A stretch of DNA of 64,000 bases from Flavobacteriia bacterium (GTDB lineage: Bacteria > Bacteroidota > Bacteroidia > Flavobacteriales_D > Crocinitomicaceae). Where the stretch lies: positions 1 to 64,000 of the forward strand of contig JACPDW010000012.1 of assembly GCA_016183815.1 (NCBI GenBank). Reading direction: 5' to 3'. Position numbers and translations under genes: made by a program. Shown here in pieces: positions 166 to 45,587 of this stretch (position 1 is its first letter; every line of letters begins with the position of its first letter). The notes beneath the pieces were generated by a model that saw only the letters and a program-made list of their open reading frames with translations, ran no database searches and was not told the origin of the DNA.

Positions 166-1569
166 CTACTTTTGTTCTTTTTTAATCCATTGTCTATTCA
201 TCAAAGCATAAACAGCGAGATACACAAAACAAAGTACGCCTACCCAATAGCTAAGACGGATTCCTAATAACTGATCACCTGCAAGCCATCCTTGAAAAAC
301 ACTAACAAACCCACCACCCATAATCATCATAATTAGAAATCCACTTCCTTTATTGGTTAATGGACCTAAATTTCTTATGGACAAAGTAAAAATACATGGC
401 CACAAGGTACTACAAAACAATCCAACACTGATAAAAGCATAAATACTTAAAACCGAAGTTGAATACATTCCTATAAGTAAAGACACAATTCCAAGAAGAG
501 AAAACAACAACAATTGGATTTCTGGTTTTCCTTTGCTCATTAAGTCAGCGATAATCAAAAGTATAATAGGAATAAAATAATATGAAAACTGTCCTACTTC
601 GTTGTTTGTTAAAATATTTACAAGCAAAAATAACCCAAAAGCAGCAAATGGTAAGACAAAACCTAATATTTTTTTTCCATTTTCAGTCAAATTAAAAGCT
701 CCTGCAGCAGATGTCCATCTTCCTATCATTAAACTTGCCCAAAACAAAGAAACATAAGGGGATACTTCATTTGTTTTTAATCCCACCACTTTTTGAAGGT
801 AATCAGAAAAATTCCCAGCTGTAGAAACTTCCACTCCTACATATAAAAAAATCGCCAACATTCCAAAGGTGAGTTGAGGAAAAGAGAAAATAGACTTTTT
901 ATTTTCTAACTGAAGCGTATCTGAATTGTCATTAGTCAAATGATTTGGAATTTTTGAAAACTTGATGACAATTGCCACCAACACAAAAGCCAATCCTAAA
1001 ATCAAATAAGGTATTTTAATACTTTGAATGTTAGCAATGGTATTTCCAGAAGAAACAGTTCCAAAAATGGCTAAACTCAATAAAACTGGCCCAATTGTCG
1101 TTCCAATATTGTTTATTCCACCCGCTAAACTTAAGCGCTGAGAACCAGTACTTTGTTCACCAAGATTAATCGTCAATGGGTTTGCTGCTGTTTGTTGCAA
1201 AGAAAAACCTAAACCAACTATAAAAAGTCCACTAATCATTAATCCGAAAGATGCTTGATTCGCTGCAGGAATAAATAACAATGTACCTAAGGCAGACAAT
1301 AAAAGTCCGTAAATCATTCCATTCTTATAACCAATACGAAGGAGAAGATCTTTTTTTATTAAAAATGAAAACACCATATACAAAATCGAACCAATAGTAT
1401 AGGCCAAATAAAAAGCAAAACTAATTAATTGAGATTGCCATTGTTCTAAATTAAGATGATTTTTAAAGACTGGTATTAAAATATCGTTTGAAGCAGCTAC
1501 AAAACCCCAAAAAAAGAATACACTTGTGATGGTTATTAATGCTGGATAATTTGTGTTTTTTTGTTCCAT
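166..1569 (-). CDS. Sugar MFS transporter, FucP/GluP type
   Basis: Predicted inner-membrane sugar:proton symporter of the major facilitator superfamily, 467 residues with about 12 hydrophobic segments. The N-terminus carries FFFWGFVAASNDILIPVFK, typical of the L-fucose permease FucP and the glucose/galactose transporter GluP, and the loop GEQSTGSQRLSLAGGINNIGTTIGP fits the same group, though its spelling here is only for orientation. The substrate cannot be read from sequence; fucose, glucose/galactose and N-acetylglucosamine are all transported by this family. It begins 6 bases after smpB and is probably the last gene of a minus-strand run that starts near 5.0 kb. Confidence 0.85.
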   Translation of the reverse strand: MEQKNTNYPALITITSVFFFWGFVAASNDILIPVFKNHLNLEQWQSQLISFAFYLAYTIGSILYMVFSFLIKKDLLLRIGYKNGMIYGLLLSALGTLLFIPAANQASFGLMISGLFIVGLGFSLQQTAANPLTINLGEQSTGSQRLSLAGGINNIGTTIGPVLLSLAIFGTVSSGNTIANIQSIKIPYLILGLAFVLVAIVIKFSKIPNHLTNDNSDTLQLENKKSIFSFPQLTFGMLAIFLYVGVEVSTAGNFSDYLQKVVGLKTNEVSPYVSLFWASLMIGRWTSAAGAFNLTENGKKILGFVLPFAAFGLFLLVNILTNNEVGQFSYYFIPIILLIIADLMSKGKPEIQLLLFSLLGIVSLLIGMYSTSVLSIYAFISVGLFCSTLWPCIFTLSIRNLGPLTNKGSGFLIMMIMGGGFVSVFQGWLAGDQLLGIRLSYWVGVLCFVYLAVYALMNRQWIKKEQK

Positions 1570-40557: not shown

Positions 40558-40779
40558 ATGAAACAAGTAATCTTAAACATCGAGGATGATAAACTTTTAG
40601 CTTTTATGAATTTTATTAAAACATTAAATTACGTTTCAATTGAAAAGGAAAGTGATTTAACTGATTGGCAAATACAACAATTAGACCTTGCTTTAGAAGA
40701 ACATCAAAATGGAAAAGCTAATTATGTAGATTGGGAAGATGCAAAAAAAGATTTGTTTGAAAAGTTCAATGTTAAATGA
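40558..40779 (+). CDS. Antitoxin of a RelE/ParE-type module
   Basis: 73 residues, acidic, starting MKQVILNIEDDKLLAFMNFI and containing SDLTDWQIQQLDLALEEHQNG, the helix-turn typical of antitoxins paired with RelE/ParE toxins in Bacteroidota. The C-terminal ANYVDWEDAKKDL is probably the toxin-wrapping segment. Its stop overlaps the toxin start by 4 bases (ATGA), a coupling that keeps antitoxin in excess. The antitoxin comes first, as usual. Confidence 0.8.
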   Translation: MKQVILNIEDDKLLAFMNFIKTLNYVSIEKESDLTDWQIQQLDLALEEHQNGKANYVDWEDAKKDLFEKFNVK

Positions 40780-41060
40780 ATAACAAACTAGTATTAAGTA
40801 AGCGTTCTATTCAACAAATTAACAAAGCTTCTACCTATTTTTCATTAGAAAAAAGTGGCCTTGAAATTTTATTTTTAAAAGAGTTAGAAACTAATTTAAA
40901 ATACATCAAAAAGAATCCTTTAAAATGTCAGATACGCTACAAAGGTATTAGAATAAAATTTTTGAAAAAATTTAACTTTGGAATTCATTATCTTATTGAA
41001 CAAAACACAATTTATGTTTTAGCTGTGTTTCATACAAGTCAAAACTCAGATGAATGGTGA
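40776..41060 (+). CDS. RelE/ParE-family toxin
   Basis: 94 residues, basic. The frame LVLSKRSIQQINKASTYFSL and the fixed blocks NPLKCQIRYKGIRIKFLKKF and FGIHYLIEQNTIYVLAVFHTSQ match the RelE/ParE toxin fold; the terminal aromatic/His segment VFHTSQNSDEW resembles the end of ParE-type toxins. RelE members cut mRNA at the ribosome while ParE members block gyrase; sequence does not decide which. Coupled to the antitoxin by a 4-base overlap. Confidence 0.82.
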   Translation: MNNKLVLSKRSIQQINKASTYFSLEKSGLEILFLKELETNLKYIKKNPLKCQIRYKGIRIKFLKKFNFGIHYLIEQNTIYVLAVFHTSQNSDEW

Positions 41061-41356: not shown

Positions 41357-41571
41357 TTTAGCTTGTGTAGGTTCAGTTGTGAGTTTTACGGCTGCTGTGA
41401 TTCTGAAGTGGGTTTGGGTGAGAATTAAAAATTGAGCATGTAGAATTCAGATTTTTTTATTTTCTAAAATGTAAATAATTTAAGAATGATTTTTAGCACT
41501 TCGATTAGACAAAGTGTAAATTTGTTGAAATAATTTTAGTGAAACGTCATTCGAAAGAGTGGCGTTTTTTT
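41357..41571 (+). repeat. Direct repeat A, copy 1
   Basis: About 215 bases that recur at 43332-43546, 1975 bases away, with roughly 15-20 differences; the last 68 bases differ at one position. The 5' part of both copies is the same reading frame (LACVG then VVSFT, ending RIKN stop), and the 3' end is an intrinsic terminator. The copies bracket the Fic gene. Confidence 0.85.
41542..41571 (+). terminator. Intrinsic terminator at the end of repeat A copy 1
   Basis: Stem AAACGTCA with TGGCGTTT (one G-T pair), loop TTCGAAAGAG, then a T-run. Confidence 0.7.
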
Positions 41572-41581
41572 AGTTTTAAGA

Positions 41582-41729
41582 GAAAATATTTTCTTATTTC
41601 TATGTTTAATTGGAAAATATTTTCTTTCTGCTTGTTTTTTTCATTTATAGAGGAAAATAATTTCTACTTCAATTTCACTTAAAATAGAAATTATTTACTT
41701 AATTTTGCTTTATAATGGAAATTATTTTC
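41582..41729 (+). promoter_or_regulatory. Array of five near-palindromic operator-like sites before the Fic gene
   Basis: Five 12-base sites of the form GAAAWTAWTTTC: 41582-41593 and 41613-41624 (both the perfect palindrome GAAAATATTTTC), 41653-41664, 41687-41698 and 41718-41729 (imperfect). They start 31, 40, 34 and 31 bases apart, near whole helical turns. The -7 box TAATTTTG at 41700-41707 lies between sites 4 and 5, so a repressor on those sites would block the promoter. The AbiEi-like domain of the Fic protein is the natural candidate. Confidence 0.7.
41700..41707 (+). promoter_or_regulatory. -7 box TAATTTTG of the Fic gene
   Basis: Matches TAnnTTTG; transcription would start near 41714, giving a leader of about 40 bases. 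Operator-like sites flank it on both sides. Confidence 0.55.
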
Positions 41730-41753: not shown

Positions 41754-43241
41754 ATGGAAAAAAATATCCCAATACATTTGCAAGAAATTATTTTTGGTTC
41801 ATCAGATCCAAAAACATCTAAGCTAATCTCAAAACTTGAAAAGGAAGGTAAAGTCAGAAAAATTTCACCTAGATTATATTCTGGTAATTTAATTGATGGA
41901 GCAGATATTATTGTAAGAAGAAACATATTTACCATATTAGGGCATCTATATCCTGGTTCTGTTTTGAGTCATAGGTCTGCTCTTGAATTTAAACCAACAG
42001 CAACTGGTCAATTGTTTGTTACCTATACATATAACAAAAAAATTAGCCTACCTGGTATTACTATACGATTTTTAGAAGGTTATGCTCCAATTGAAGGGGA
42101 TAATAAATTGGCTGGTGAATTATTTGTTTCTCAAAGAGAACGAGCTTTGCTTGAAAATTTGCAAGTTTCAAGGAAACTAGGACCTGATTCTAAAACGCTT
42201 ACACTTCCAGAAATCGAAGAAAAACTAGAGCAAATTGTTCGTGTAAATGGAGAGGATGAATTGAACAAAACTAGAGATTTAGCTCGAGAAATTTCAATAA
42301 AATTGGATTTAAAAGCGGAATTTGAAAAACTTGATAAAATGATAAGTGCGTTACTCAGCACGCAAACATCCAAAATTTTAAAATCACCACTTGCCTTAGC
42401 AAGAGCATTTGGAAAACCATACGATTCCTCAAGATACGAACTTTTTGATATGTTATATCAACACTTAAGTCAGCATGAATTTAAATATTTTCAAGATGAA
42501 AATGTTGAAATTCAAGCATATAGGAATTTTGCTTTTTTTGAGAGTTATTTTTCTAATTATATAGAAGGAACAGAGTTTGAACTTGATGACGCAAAAAAAA
42601 TAATTGAAACACAAATCCCATTGGCTGCAAGAAATGCAGATTCACATGACATTTTAGGCACATACAATTTAGTTTCTAACAAACAAGAAATGAGTATAGT
42701 TCCAGATACCGCTGAAGAATTACTTCATATTCTTAAATATAGGCATCAAGTACTATTGTCAGCTAGAAAAGATAAGAATCCTGGAGAATTTAAGGATAAG
42801 AACAATTTTGCAGGTCAAACATCATTCGTAGATTTTAAATTGGTTGAAGGGACACTTATTAAGAGTTTTGATTATTATGGTGCATTGAAACATCCTTTTG
42901 CAAAAGCCGTGTATATTATGTTTGTAATAAGTGAAGTTCATCCTTTTCTCGATGGAAATGGAAGAATTGCAAGACTGATGATGAATGCAGAATTGACACA
43001 AGCGAATCAATCAAAAATAATCATTCCAACAGTATATCGTGAAGATTATATTCTAGCAATCAGGAAATTAACTAGACAAAGATCTCCCGATGCTTATGTT
43101 CGGATGTTATCAAAAATTCGAGAATATAGCACAAATATTAAAGGAGCAACGATGGAAAAGATGCAAAAAATTCTTGAAACTTCCAATGCGTTTTATGAGC
43201 CTAATGAAGGGAAATTGAAGCTAATTCAAGGGACTATTTAG
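41754..43241 (+). CDS. AbiEi-like domain fused to a Fic AMP-transferase
   Basis: 495 residues. Residues 1 to about 200 resemble an AbiEi-type antitoxin winged-helix regulator: LISKLEKEGKVRKISPRLYS, IIVRRNIFTILGHLYPGSVL, SHRSALE, LPGITIRFLEG. The C-terminal Fic domain has the full active-site loop HPFLDGNGRIAR starting at His396, so AMPylation is expected. The inhibitory motif (S/T)xxxE(G/N) is present as SNYIEG at 267-272, placing it in the class of Fic proteins inhibited by their own N-terminal side. It may repress its own gene through the palindromic array. Target unknown. Confidence 0.85.
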   Translation: MEKNIPIHLQEIIFGSSDPKTSKLISKLEKEGKVRKISPRLYSGNLIDGADIIVRRNIFTILGHLYPGSVLSHRSALEFKPTATGQLFVTYTYNKKISLPGITIRFLEGYAPIEGDNKLAGELFVSQRERALLENLQVSRKLGPDSKTLTLPEIEEKLEQIVRVNGEDELNKTRDLAREISIKLDLKAEFEKLDKMISALLSTQTSKILKSPLALARAFGKPYDSSRYELFDMLYQHLSQHEFKYFQDENVEIQAYRNFAFFESYFSNYIEGTEFELDDAKKIIETQIPLAARNADSHDILGTYNLVSNKQEMSIVPDTAEELLHILKYRHQVLLSARKDKNPGEFKDKNNFAGQTSFVDFKLVEGTLIKSFDYYGALKHPFAKAVYIMFVISEVHPFLDGNGRIARLMMNAELTQANQSKIIIPTVYREDYILAIRKLTRQRSPDAYVRMLSKIREYSTNIKGATMEKMQKILETSNAFYEPNEGKLKLIQGTI

Positions 43242-43242
43242 C

Positions 43243-43410
43243 TTGAAAAAGATTCATTACACTTTGCTTTTAAAGAACAATTTATTCGTATTTGCGACTT
43301 TGGACCCGCAAGATTACACAAAAACGAATGTTTTAGCTTGTGTAGGTGCAGTTGTGAGTTTTACGGTTACAGTTTTTTTGAAGTGGGTTAGGGTGAGAAT
43401 TAAAAATTGA
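43243..43410 (+). CDS. Possible small single-helix membrane protein with TTG start
   Basis: A 55-codon frame starts TTG one base after the Fic stop and ends TGA at 43410. The product starts MKKIHYTLLLKNN, has LDPQDYTKTN, then one membrane helix (VLACVGAVVSFTVTVFLKW) and a basic end RVRIKN. Its last 26 codons belong to repeat A, and in copy 1 (41358 onward) the same protein ending is kept despite several base changes. That suggests a real, once-selected gene of unknown function. The TTG start is uncertain. Confidence 0.45.
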   Translation: MKKIHYTLLLKNNLFVFATLDPQDYTKTNVLACVGAVVSFTVTVFLKWVRVRIKN

Positions 43411-43546
43411 GCATGTAGAATTTAGAATTTTTATTTTCTTAAATGTAAACAATTAAAGAATGATATTTAGCACTTCGATTAAACAAAGTGTAAATTTGTT
43501 GAAATAATTTTAGTGAAACGTCATTCGAAAGAGTGGCGTTTTTTTT
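43332..43546 (+). repeat. Direct repeat A, copy 2
   Basis: Second copy of the 215-base repeat at 41357-41571. It contains the 3' end of the small membrane-protein frame and ends in an intrinsic terminator, just ahead of the SIR2-like gene. Confidence 0.85.
43516..43546 (+). terminator. Intrinsic terminator at the end of repeat A copy 2
   Basis: Stem AAACGTCA with TGGCGTTT, loop TTCGAAAGAG, then a run of eight T. It isolates the SIR2 operon from the Fic transcript. Confidence 0.75.
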
Positions 43547-43564
43547 AATTTTCAAAAGAAATAC

Positions 43565-43576: not shown

Positions 43577-44458
43577 ATGTCAGACAATGAGAAAGTTTTA
43601 GAAACTTCAAAAATTAACACAGAGAAAATTGTTCTTATTACTGGTTCTGGTTCAGTAAAAAATTCATGGAAACCAATTTATCGAGCAATTGGTATGCAGT
43701 TTGATGAACCTGAATTATCAAATATTTTTTTTAGTTCTATTGTCCATGAGTTAAGAGTTTTGTCATTTTTATCAGGACCTGATCAAGAAGACAAATATCT
43801 CAAGATAACTTGGGAGAAATTGAAAAATACTCGCTTTGAATTCTACTCTTCTTTAAAAAAGAGAATAGCAATTGAAATAAAAAAAAGTATAAAAATTAAT
43901 GAAATTGAATTGCAAGACAATTTTGAATTCCTCATTGATAAATACTGTGATTCTATACCTTTATTATATACAACTAATTGGGACGATATTATTCAAAGCT
44001 TTGCATTTACTAAATATGGTAAAAATCATTTTGTAAATTTTATTCATGGTTCAATAAATAGATTTCATGTCTTTATGCCTGGAATTTCTCATAATGATGC
44101 TTTTCACTCTTTATTACTTCCAAGTGAAACTAGTTTTGAACACTATTTCCCAGAATCTACCAAGACACATTTATTTTCATATTCACTTTCACCAATATGT
44201 AATTTTGAAAAACTAATTTTTTATGGTATTTCATTGTCGCCCTTAGACTCTGAATTGAATTATATGATTAGCAGTTTACTAAACAGAAATTCATTGATTT
44301 TAATAATTGTAATAGATCCGAATTACAAGTCAATTTTTAATCGTTTATTGATAATTATGAGTGTGTCTAACAATTCAAAAGAGTTAAAAGGAATTGGTAT
44401 AGATCCAAATACTCTTAAAGAAGAAAAATTTATTCTTAAAGGGAAACCAATAGTGTAA
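43577..44458 (+). CDS. SIR2-like protein, probable NAD-degrading effector
   Basis: 293 residues. SIR2-fold landmarks occur in order: VLITGSGSVKNSW (about 19-31, nucleotide-binding glycine loop), LLYTTNWDDII with Asn134, FIHGSIN with His157, and IFYGISLSPLD (about 214-224). Asn and His match the catalytic pair of sirtuins and of SIR2 NADases such as those in Thoeris ThsA, DSR1/2 and prokaryotic Argonaute systems. There are no zinc-finger cysteines, so a deacetylase is unlikely. It is 8 bases upstream of a nucleotidyl-cyclase-like gene, which suggests that a cyclic nucleotide could trigger it. No ligand-binding SLOG or STING domain is attached. Confidence 0.75.
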   Translation: MSDNEKVLETSKINTEKIVLITGSGSVKNSWKPIYRAIGMQFDEPELSNIFFSSIVHELRVLSFLSGPDQEDKYLKITWEKLKNTRFEFYSSLKKRIAIEIKKSIKINEIELQDNFEFLIDKYCDSIPLLYTTNWDDIIQSFAFTKYGKNHFVNFIHGSINRFHVFMPGISHNDAFHSLLLPSETSFEHYFPESTKTHLFSYSLSPICNFEKLIFYGISLSPLDSELNYMISSLLNRNSLILIIVIDPNYKSIFNRLLIIMSVSNNSKELKGIGIDPNTLKEEKFILKGKPIV

Positions 44459-44466
44459 TTATTTAT

Positions 44467-45372
44467 ATGACAAAGATTGAGTACAGATTAGTAGCTTTTA
44501 TTGATATTTTGGGATTCAAAAATTTAGTATTAAATAATGTTGAGTCAATTCTTGATATACTGTCATCTTTTCAAAGTGAGGCTTCAAGAATTTCACATTT
44601 TGAAAGCCACATCATGGAACAATTAAATACAAATGAGTTAACTGAAGAACAAAAAAACGGTGCATTATCTGATTTAAAACGTCAAGATATGCAAATCTCG
44701 ATGTTTTCTGATTTGTTTGTAATATCTTATTCAAATTATAGGAATAATTTGGGTTATAGTATCATCGAATTATTTGATAAAATAAGGGATATGCAGAATG
44801 AATTAAGTTCATTTAATGTTTTTTTAAGAGGAGGTATTACGTATGGAAAATTGTATCATAAAGGCAAAATTTGTTTTGGAGAAGCGATGATAAAAGCATA
44901 CAAAATTGAAAGCACAGTAGCAGTATATCCACGAATAATAATTGACTCAGAAATATACAATAAAAAGTTTTTTCAGCAACTTTTTGAATTTTCGTCATGC
45001 AAAATTGAATATTTTGAAGACAATCAATTTGGGATTTCAATTTTTAATTCTGCCAAAAGAGTATTACAAACTGAAAAGATTGTAGAAATTTTAAAAGTTG
45101 AAAATCCTTTAATGAAAGAGAATGGTGACTATTCTTACAAATTTCTTTTTTTTATTGAAATGGAAAAACTTAAAAAAGTTATTGAAGTGAATGTTAAATG
45201 GTATTTCGACCAAAGTAAAAATGATGAGCGAACCCGAGAAAAAATAAAATGGATGGTTTTAACCTATAATCAAATACTAAATATGCAAGTTGAATATATT
45301 GATGAAAAATATTACAAAGACCTTTACAAAAAGCTGATTTTAGACAAGGAGTCTAACCTTCTAACTTCTTAA
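44467..45372 (+). CDS. Class III nucleotidyl-cyclase-like protein
   Basis: 301 residues. The first metal-binding motif is AFIDILGF (Asp13), the second is ISMFSDLFVIS (Asp82), the substrate/metal hairpin region reads FLRGGITYGKLYHKG (about 119-133), and FGEAMIKAYKIES (137-149) takes the place of the G-D-x-VN-x-AAR-x-E stretch of class III cyclases. The following AVYPRIIID (152-160) is typical of stand-alone bacterial cyclase-like proteins. The last 100 residues are helical and unassigned. Both metal Asp residues are present, so activity is plausible; which nucleotide is made is unknown. It pairs with the SIR2-like gene (8 bases apart) and converges with a small minus-strand gene, overlapping by 4 bases. 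Confidence 0.7.
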   Translation: MTKIEYRLVAFIDILGFKNLVLNNVESILDILSSFQSEASRISHFESHIMEQLNTNELTEEQKNGALSDLKRQDMQISMFSDLFVISYSNYRNNLGYSIIELFDKIRDMQNELSSFNVFLRGGITYGKLYHKGKICFGEAMIKAYKIESTVAVYPRIIIDSEIYNKKFFQQLFEFSSCKIEYFEDNQFGISIFNSAKRVLQTEKIVEILKVENPLMKENGDYSYKFLFFIEMEKLKKVIEVNVKWYFDQSKNDERTREKIKWMVLTYNQILNMQVEYIDEKYYKDLYKKLILDKESNLLTS

Positions 45373-45587
45373 TATTTCTCTTTCCTCACCAAATCCTTTG
45401 CAACTTCCTTCTTTATCTTCTTCAAAGTTGCAGTCAAATCCTCAAAATAATGATCTTTTTCATTTACTGTTTTGAGCAAAATAAGTGCTTTTTGAAAAAG
45501 TTCATTTTTTGCTTGTGCTTTTTGGAATGTATCGAGGATAAGGTTAATACAATTGTATTTGTTTTTAAGTCCAAAACCTTTTAACAT
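45369..45587 (-). CDS. Small basic helical protein, unknown
   Basis: 72 residues, Lys-rich and mostly helical (LILDTFQKAQAKNELFQKAL, LKKIKKEVAKDLVRKEKY). No family is recognisable. Its stop overlaps the stop region of the cyclase-like gene. The 100 bases upstream contain a weak inverted repeat (TTAGAAT and ATTCTAA) and nothing else obvious. It may be a truncated remnant. Confidence 0.45.
   Translation of the reverse strand: MLKGFGLKNKYNCINLILDTFQKAQAKNELFQKALILLKTVNEKDHYFEDLTATLKKIKKEVAKDLVRKEKY

What the first reader, a model, noticed from the sequence alone, without database searches (positions are those of the whole stretch)
44467..45372. Stand-alone cyclase-like family with FIDILGF and FSD motifs
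The protein has class III cyclase-like metal motifs, but the usual substrate-specifying Lys/Asp positions are replaced and AVYPRIIID follows a G-E-A helix. So the base it uses may not be adenine or guanine. Its 100-residue helical tail is also unassigned.
Basis: partly seen in the sequence, partly recalled or inferred. Interest (0 to 1): 0.55.

Follow-up and report, generated by a model that had tools for sequence, protein, structure and literature searches.

The report
Cyclase-fold family in bacterial defence loci
This gene makes a protein built like the enzymes that produce cyclic AMP, but with the usual base-choosing and catalytic residues replaced; some of its relatives sit beside toxin-antitoxin and restriction genes, which points to a defence or toxin role with unknown chemistry.

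Summary
The 301-aa protein has the class III nucleotide cyclase fold. D13 and D82 take the two metal positions; the base-choosing Lys/Asp positions read S78/I135. (1) The Asn/Arg pair of class III catalysis is never present together (0 of 119 members), while both Asp are in 117 of 119; R121, E148, R156 and K259 are near-invariant. (2) The helical tail is part of the family. (3) The gene starts 8 bp after a SIR2-like gene. Relatives occur in prophages, plasmids, inside type I restriction operons and, in four loci, directly behind PanA antitoxin genes. A published PanA-neutralised toxin, PanT of Burkholderia prophage phi52237, is called a putative nucleotide cyclase (PMC8832971); I infer, without direct comparison, that it belongs here. 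Best reading: a conflict-system effector that keeps the metal-nucleotide scaffold but has a rebuilt active site, in the window probably wired to a SIR2-type NADase. Many relatives stand alone, and no activity of any member was tested. Not a canonical cyclase, not Pycsar.

The parts
44467..45372 (+). Cyclase-fold protein, 301 aa (the finding)
44497..44517 (+). FIDILGF, metal motif 1 (D13)
   Evidence: D in 117 of 119, gap in 2
44704..44712 (+). FSD, metal motif 2 (D82)
   Evidence: D in 119 of 119
44827..44847 (+). RGGITYG strand (R121 to G127), equivalent of RIGIHTG
   Evidence: R121 in 117 of 119
44878..44913 (+). GEAMIKAYKIES helix; class III Asn/Arg positions are I142/K146; E148 near-invariant
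44926..44946 (+). YPRIIID strand (P155, R156)
   Evidence: R156 in 108 of 119
45046..45351 (+). Helical C-terminal part (residues 194-295), with family residues K259 and W262 at 45241-45252
43577..44458 (+). SIR2-like protein, 293 aa, stop 8 bp before the cyclase-fold gene; probable operon partner; GSGS, TTNWD (N134), HGS (H157), GISL..D motifs in order
   Evidence: no Pfam hit above cut-off

Best explanation
The protein belongs to a widespread, mobile family with the class III nucleotide cyclase fold. The family keeps the two metal aspartates and the nucleotide scaffold but has lost both the base-choosing Lys/Asp and the Asn/Arg pair. It has fixed R121, E148, R156 and K259. I propose that it is an effector of bacterial conflict systems (toxin-antitoxin, abortive infection, accessory gene of restriction systems): it binds a metal-nucleotide and, when released or triggered, poisons the cell's nucleotide or transcription economy. 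In the PanA clade an antitoxin would hold it in check. In the window it is probably co-transcribed with a SIR2-like protein whose NADase residues are kept, so the pair is probably a two-gene suicide-type defence module working as a complex. Shown here: fold (predicted), metal residues, residue losses, gene layout, genomic contexts. Inferred: co-transcription, toxicity of this member, nucleotide chemistry, complex with the SIR2-like partner, defence function.
For: Fold. Residue mapping; conservation in 119 members. PanA pairing: L027 (gap 2 bp), L043 (-4), L108 (1) and, found by a later search, L209 (13 bp, Panacea domain 3.9e-12). PF13274 occurs once in each of the three records searched, and that copy is the neighbour (two are large assemblies of 7.0 and 3.7 Mb, the third a 38.5-kb virus contig). 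The first three form one clade, support 0.989. Published toxin PanT of prophage phi52237: putative nucleotide cyclase, blocks transcription more than translation, bound and neutralised by PanA (PMC8832971, passages, section 9). L027 fits phrog_21097 over its whole length (698 bits) and the window protein also hits it, 2.3e-9. Restriction context: HsdM_N in 4 of 119 adjacent co-directional genes against 218 matches in 148 genomes (summed); gene inside hsdM-hsdS-hsdR operons in L038, L051, L077, L083 (HsdM of L051 and HsdS of L038 and L077 by Pfam, the others by similarity to these, hsdR by size and place). SIR2-like partner: hhalign 91.6 percent, E 8.1e-7; ordered motifs in 0 of 200,000 shuffles.
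Against: 67 of 109 loci have no co-directional mechanical ORF within 40 bp on either side (24 have one upstream, 25 downstream). The nine other members of the window's clade show no shared partner (eight opened, L052). No PanA lies beside the window gene. No SIR2-like neighbour was found for other members in the 124 loci then held (phmmer at E 1 and a strict motif pattern, short flanks for L002-L015). No activity is known for any member by direct identity; PanT of phi52237 was not compared residue by residue. The PanA-paired members lack W262. Single-sequence folding of the partner failed (pLDDT 33). The RM background is from the window's phylum only.
Confidence: 0.48

Rival explanations
1. 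One reading: a true nucleotide cyclase with another base choice, working like Pycsar, making a messenger that switches on the neighbouring NADase.
For: Both metal Asp in 117 of 119 members; PycC enzymes also use non-standard base residues (PMC11224242, passages); PycTIR, a Pycsar effector, depletes NAD+ (same passages), and the window partner is SIR2-like.
Against: Asn and Arg are never present together (0 of 119), whereas the PycC-like protein in L074 keeps an N...R motif by eye (ANVASR). Base positions vary across the family. Only 1 of 86 members touches the PADLOC PycC model, E 0.0023. No recurrent effector: a PycTM gene was found near one member, L074, where a separate PycC-like gene stands between. 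The 293-aa partner leaves little room for a messenger-binding domain (inference).
Confidence: 0.2
2. A pseudocyclase: it binds a nucleotide and metal but does no chemistry, acting as a sensor or regulator of its partner.
For: Loss of Asn/Arg and of base residues; a P. aeruginosa 'class III adenylyl cyclase-like ATP-binding protein' (6yii) is among the fold matches (title only, no paper found).
Against: Near-invariance of D13, D82, R121, E148, R156 and K259 over very distant members is more than binding alone usually keeps; many members have no partner to regulate; PanA pairing suggests that the protein itself is the toxic part.
Confidence: 0.22
3. A mobile-element gene without a conflict role, carried along by prophages and plasmids.
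For: Patchy presence (15 of 395 genomes of the phylum, and 3 of 249 of the order, own genome counted in both); many copies without a tight neighbour.
Against: Repeated placement in restriction operons and next to PanA.
Confidence: 0.1

Closest known systems
PanA-PanT toxin-antitoxin, 'nucleotide cyclase' PanT of Burkholderia prophage phi52237 (PMC8832971, passages and section 9)
   Same: Predicted cyclase-like fold without domain-database hit; four family members here sit directly behind PanA antitoxin genes, one of them (L027) in a virus contig that looks P2-like by eye.
   Different: The window member has a SIR2-like partner instead of PanA; direct sequence comparison was not made; product of that toxin unknown.
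Canonical class III adenylate/guanylate cyclases (PF00211)
   Same: Fold, both metal Asp, R and G of the RIGIHTG strand, A and E of the helix.
   Different: Base-choosing Lys/Asp and Asn/Arg absent as pairs in all 119 members examined; R156, K259, W262 added; C-terminal helical part. No Pfam match at E 0.01 for the window protein; 2 of 86 members give weak PF00211 hits (best 0.0022).
Pycsar (PycC + PycTIR/PycTM)
   Same: Class III fold, mobile defence loci, possible NADase partner.
   Different: No PycC signature in the window protein, no cyclic-nucleotide effector beside it; in L074 the family gene stands beside a PycC-like/PycTM pair as a separate gene.
SIR2-domain NADases of defence systems (ThsA, DSR; recalled)
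   Same: Upstream gene keeps TTNxD Asn and HG His (catalytic roles recalled).
   Different: Partner is a short single domain, too divergent for Pfam SIR2_2.

Membership tests
Class III nucleotide cyclase | Fold | tested here: met
   predicted model, (Z 13.4, rmsd 2.9, 148 aligned for 1ab8_B)
Class III nucleotide cyclase | Two metal-binding Asp | tested here: met
   D13 and D82
Class III nucleotide cyclase | Base-choosing Lys/Asp (or Glu/Cys; recalled) | tested here: not met
   S78 and I135; K78 with D135 in 0 of 119
Class III nucleotide cyclase | Asn/Arg pair on helix 4 (role recalled) | tested here: not met
   I142 and K146; both N and R in 0 of 119; in the 16 canonical domains both columns are invariant
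Class III nucleotide cyclase | Head-to-tail dimer with shared active sites; cyclase activity | not testable with these tools
   no complex prediction or assay
Pycsar | PycC profile match | tested here: not met
   window protein none; 1 of 86 members at E 0.0023
Pycsar | Adjacent cyclic-pyrimidine effector (PycTM/PycTIR) | tested here: not met
   window neighbour is SIR2-like without Pfam hit over cut-off; PF00027, PF18967 and TIR families are not among the 16 Pfam families that match two or more of 119 neighbours
PanAT toxin-antitoxin | PanA (PF13274) gene next to the toxin gene | tested here: not met
   for the window gene (neighbour has no PF13274 hit); met for L027, L043, L108, L209
PanAT toxin-antitoxin | Sequence relation to PanT of phi52237 | not tested
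   phage collection gave no match for the window protein or three relatives; whether it holds that phage was not checked; the record was not fetched
SIR2-like (upstream gene) | Ordered GxG, TTNxD, HG, GYS..D motifs | tested here: met
   the shuffle pattern was written after seeing the sequence and loosened to fit it
SIR2-like (upstream gene) | Pfam SIR2_2 over cut-off | tested here: not met
   also not among the SIR2_2 matches of the own genome

The most novel reading that the evidence does not exclude
A class III cyclase fold with a rebuilt active site (D13, D82, R121, E148, R156, K259) that carries out a different metal-dependent nucleotide reaction, used as a cell-poisoning effector that evolution plugs into many conflict systems: PanA toxin-antitoxin, a ParA-like ATPase pair, type I restriction operons, and in the window a SIR2-type NADase pair.
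Probability: 0.33. Interest if true: 0.8.

Novelty: new variant of a known kind. Interest (0 to 1): 0.55.

Why it matters
It joins scattered uncharacterised proteins and probably one orphan toxin into one family with a clear residue signature, and it makes testable whether the cyclase fold was converted into a toxin with different chemistry. No Pfam or NCBIfam model covers the family in the scans made.

Tried and rejected
Pycsar membership was rejected. A 'conserved synthase with swapped effectors' reading (CBASS-like) was considered from SIR2-like, PIN, PycTM, CHAT-like and membrane neighbours; the neighbour survey showed no recurrent effector, so I dropped it. The L074 PycTM most likely belongs to the PycC-like gene next to it. 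Relatives of the SIR2-like gene: none in 395 genomes of the phylum, plasmids, virus contigs or the loci held. One search (249 genomes of the order) gave six weak matches (E 3e-4 to 0.006): five contain stops; the two loci opened (L197, L201) hold aro-type genes by eye. Single-sequence fold of the partner failed. The first SIR2 comparison with 8 sequences gave 41 percent over 28 columns; with 16 it gave 91.6 percent. A repeat at the flanks was followed and taken as ordinary genome repeats. The profile search of solved structures put a designed helical bundle (0.0043) and a chemokine (0.29) above the first cyclase (0.62); 7 of 13 listed rows are class III cyclases; with the first 13-sequence profile the only row was an unrelated protein. 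BFVD gave no match with E <= 0.001. Literature: searches listed no paper on the family as such, only the single PanT toxin; the library lacks most subscription journals, and I opened three papers (PMC11224242 and PMC10440598 passages, PMC8832971 passages and section 9).

Rows dropped before counts: one search left out five ORFs under 215 aa, identical sequences and the duplicate L028 (114 kept); one search adds L202, L203, L204, L209, L210. One search, with a rougher alignment, gave D13 in 112 of 114 (one R, one gap) and D82 in 114 of 114. The structure alignment A3 holds the window and 85 of the 88 candidates (L027, L119, L121 left out). The neighbour set of 119 leaves out opposite-strand genes, genes under 90 or over 900 aa and repeats of the same protein. 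The genome scan kept 80 of 97 relatives. Near-identical loci (L022-L024; L026/L068; L110/L111) count separately among the 109.

Full report
WHAT IS THERE. The ORF at 44467-45372 encodes 301 residues. It has no match in NCBIfam or PADLOC at E 1 and only a chance-level Pfam hit (E 0.2); it matches two PHROG families of unknown function, phrog_23933 (6.8e-29) and phrog_21097 (2.3e-9). The own-genome search found one copy.

FOLD. With 85 relatives AlphaFold2 gives pLDDT 84.7 and pTM 0.83. The order of elements for residues 5-159 is strand, helices, strand, strand, helix, strand pair, helix, strand. The best solved-structure matches are adenylate and guanylate cyclases (Foldseek 1.8e-4; VIA Z 13.4, rmsd 2.9, 148 residues for 1ab8_B). 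Foldseek TM-scores are low for the whole chain (0.35 for the first row), partly because the tail is not covered. By sequence profile alone the class III cyclases are reached only weakly (first cyclase E 0.62, below two unrelated helical chains; 7 of 13 rows are cyclases).

ACTIVE SITE. hhalign against 16 class III domains (E 0.001, probability 21.5 percent, but colinear over all motifs) gives the mapping. D13 and D82 take the metal positions. The Lys/Asp base positions are S78 and I135. The Asn/Arg positions are I142 and K146; in the 16 canonical domains these two columns are invariant. Across 119 members both Asp are present in 117 (two ORFs have a gap at 13); Asn and Arg together occur in none (Asn alone in 15, Arg alone in 7); Lys and Asp together in none. 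Near-invariant are R121 117, A144 117, E148 117, K259 115, P155 114, W262 108 and R156 108 of 119. R121, G127, G138, A144 and E148 correspond to conserved cyclase positions. R156, K259 and W262 are special to this family; the four PanA-paired members keep R156 and K259 but not W262. That R156 or K259 reaches the metal site is inference: no coordinates were available.

TAIL. Residues 194-295 are helical. They hold the K259/W262 signature, so they are part of the family. Their fold was not searched alone.

RELATIVES. 15 of 395 genomes of the phylum and 3 of 249 of the order, own genome counted; 24 plasmid records; 97 genome loci (80 kept); 23 virus contigs; none in the phage-record collection. 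By record title members come from many phyla, two archaeal records among them (L072, L101). In a FastTree of 117 members the window protein groups with nine others, support 0.912, all nine Bacillota by record title.

CONTEXT IN THE WINDOW. The SIR2-like ORF 43577-44458 ends 8 bp before the gene. It has GSGS, TTNWD, HGS and GISL..D in order (0 of 200,000 shuffles; pattern written after seeing it) and aligns with 16 SIR2_2-type proteins (91.6 percent, E 8.1e-7), but has no Pfam match and no convincing relative in the collections tried. Upstream lie a Fic gene with AbiEi-like N-terminal hits in PADLOC and an addiction-module antitoxin (PF09720) followed by a RelE/ParE-like ORF by eye, so the stretch looks like a small conflict-gene island.

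CONTEXT ELSEWHERE. (a) PanA: L027, L043 and L108 have a Panacea gene directly upstream (gaps 2, -4, 1 bp); each record has one PF13274 match, and it is this neighbour. A survey of 250 genomes of the order of L108 gave two matches besides L108 itself: L209 (40 percent identity) has a Panacea gene 13 bp upstream; L210 (33 percent over 114 residues) does not. (b) Restriction: HsdM_N matches 4 of 119 adjacent genes; the background is 218 matches in 148 genomes (summed), about one per two thousand genes by rough reckoning, in the window's phylum only. In L038, L051, L077 and L083 the gene lies between hsdM and hsdS/hsdR (12 loci opened). (c) A ParA-like AAA_31 gene directly upstream in L026/L068 (overlap 4 bp), L117 (0) and L203 (14 bp), one clade with support 0.84. 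(d) L074: beside a PycC-like gene (PF00211) and PycTM. (e) L023: between tail tube and tail assembly genes of a P2-like prophage by eye (Phage_tube PF04985 in one neighbour). Against this, 67 of 109 loci have no co-directional ORF within 40 bp, and the nine others of the window's clade share no partner.

MECHANISM. The published PanT of Burkholderia prophage phi52237 has no CDD hit, HHpred similarity to nucleotide cyclases (97 percent), inhibits transcription more than translation, leaves ATP unchanged, lowers GTP slightly, triggers RelA-dependent ppGpp, and is bound and neutralised by PanA (PMC8832971; passages, section 9). Given the PanA clade here and the 698-bit full-length match of L027 to a phage protein family, I infer at about 0.8 that this toxin is a member. 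The loss of the Asn/Arg pair means that the authors' suggestion of a cyclic nucleotide stays open. For the window I infer a two-gene module in which the SIR2-like protein is an NADase and the cyclase-fold protein is co-effector or trigger. The short partner lacks an obvious messenger-binding domain, so a protein complex is more likely than messenger signalling.

VERDICT. Real, widespread, ordinary in fold, unusual in active site and context. New variant of a known kind.

Noticed in passing
window 41754-43241 (+): Fic-domain protein (PF02661, 6.5e-13) whose N-terminal part has weak AbiEi hits in PADLOC; stands upstream of the pair.
   Followed up: partly
window 40561-41060 (+): Addiction-module pair: antitoxin (PF09720, 1.7e-5) followed by a RelE/ParE-like ORF (toxin named by eye).
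   Followed up: partly
window 41357-41585 and 43332-43561: A 230-bp non-coding repeat, 91 percent identical, in front of the Fic gene and in front of the SIR2-like/cyclase-fold pair, ending in a terminator-like hairpin by eye; parts recur elsewhere in the genome and in a genome of the same genus.
   Followed up: partly
window 45375-45547 (-): Fragment similar to a small protein family repeated elsewhere in the genome and in a genome of the same genus (L133, L134).
   Followed up: no
L071, L093, L101: A clade (support 0.994) of about 600-aa members with an N-terminal extension of about 290 residues; no Pfam hit for the L071 extension.
   Followed up: partly
L026, L068, L117 and L203: Tight two-gene pair of a ParA-like AAA_31 ATPase and a cyclase-fold member in three different settings (L026 and L068 carry the same protein).
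   Followed up: partly
L202:2040-2732 (-) and 260-982 (-): Member flanked by a caspase/CHAT-like ORF (by eye, no Pfam hit) and an OmpA-domain MotB/ZorB-like ORF (PF00691; Zor name by eye): looks like a defence island.
   Followed up: partly
L097:6888-9623 (+): hsdM- and hsdS-like genes, the family gene and a 911-aa SMC/AAA-type protein in a row with 4-bp overlaps on both sides of the family gene.
   Followed up: no
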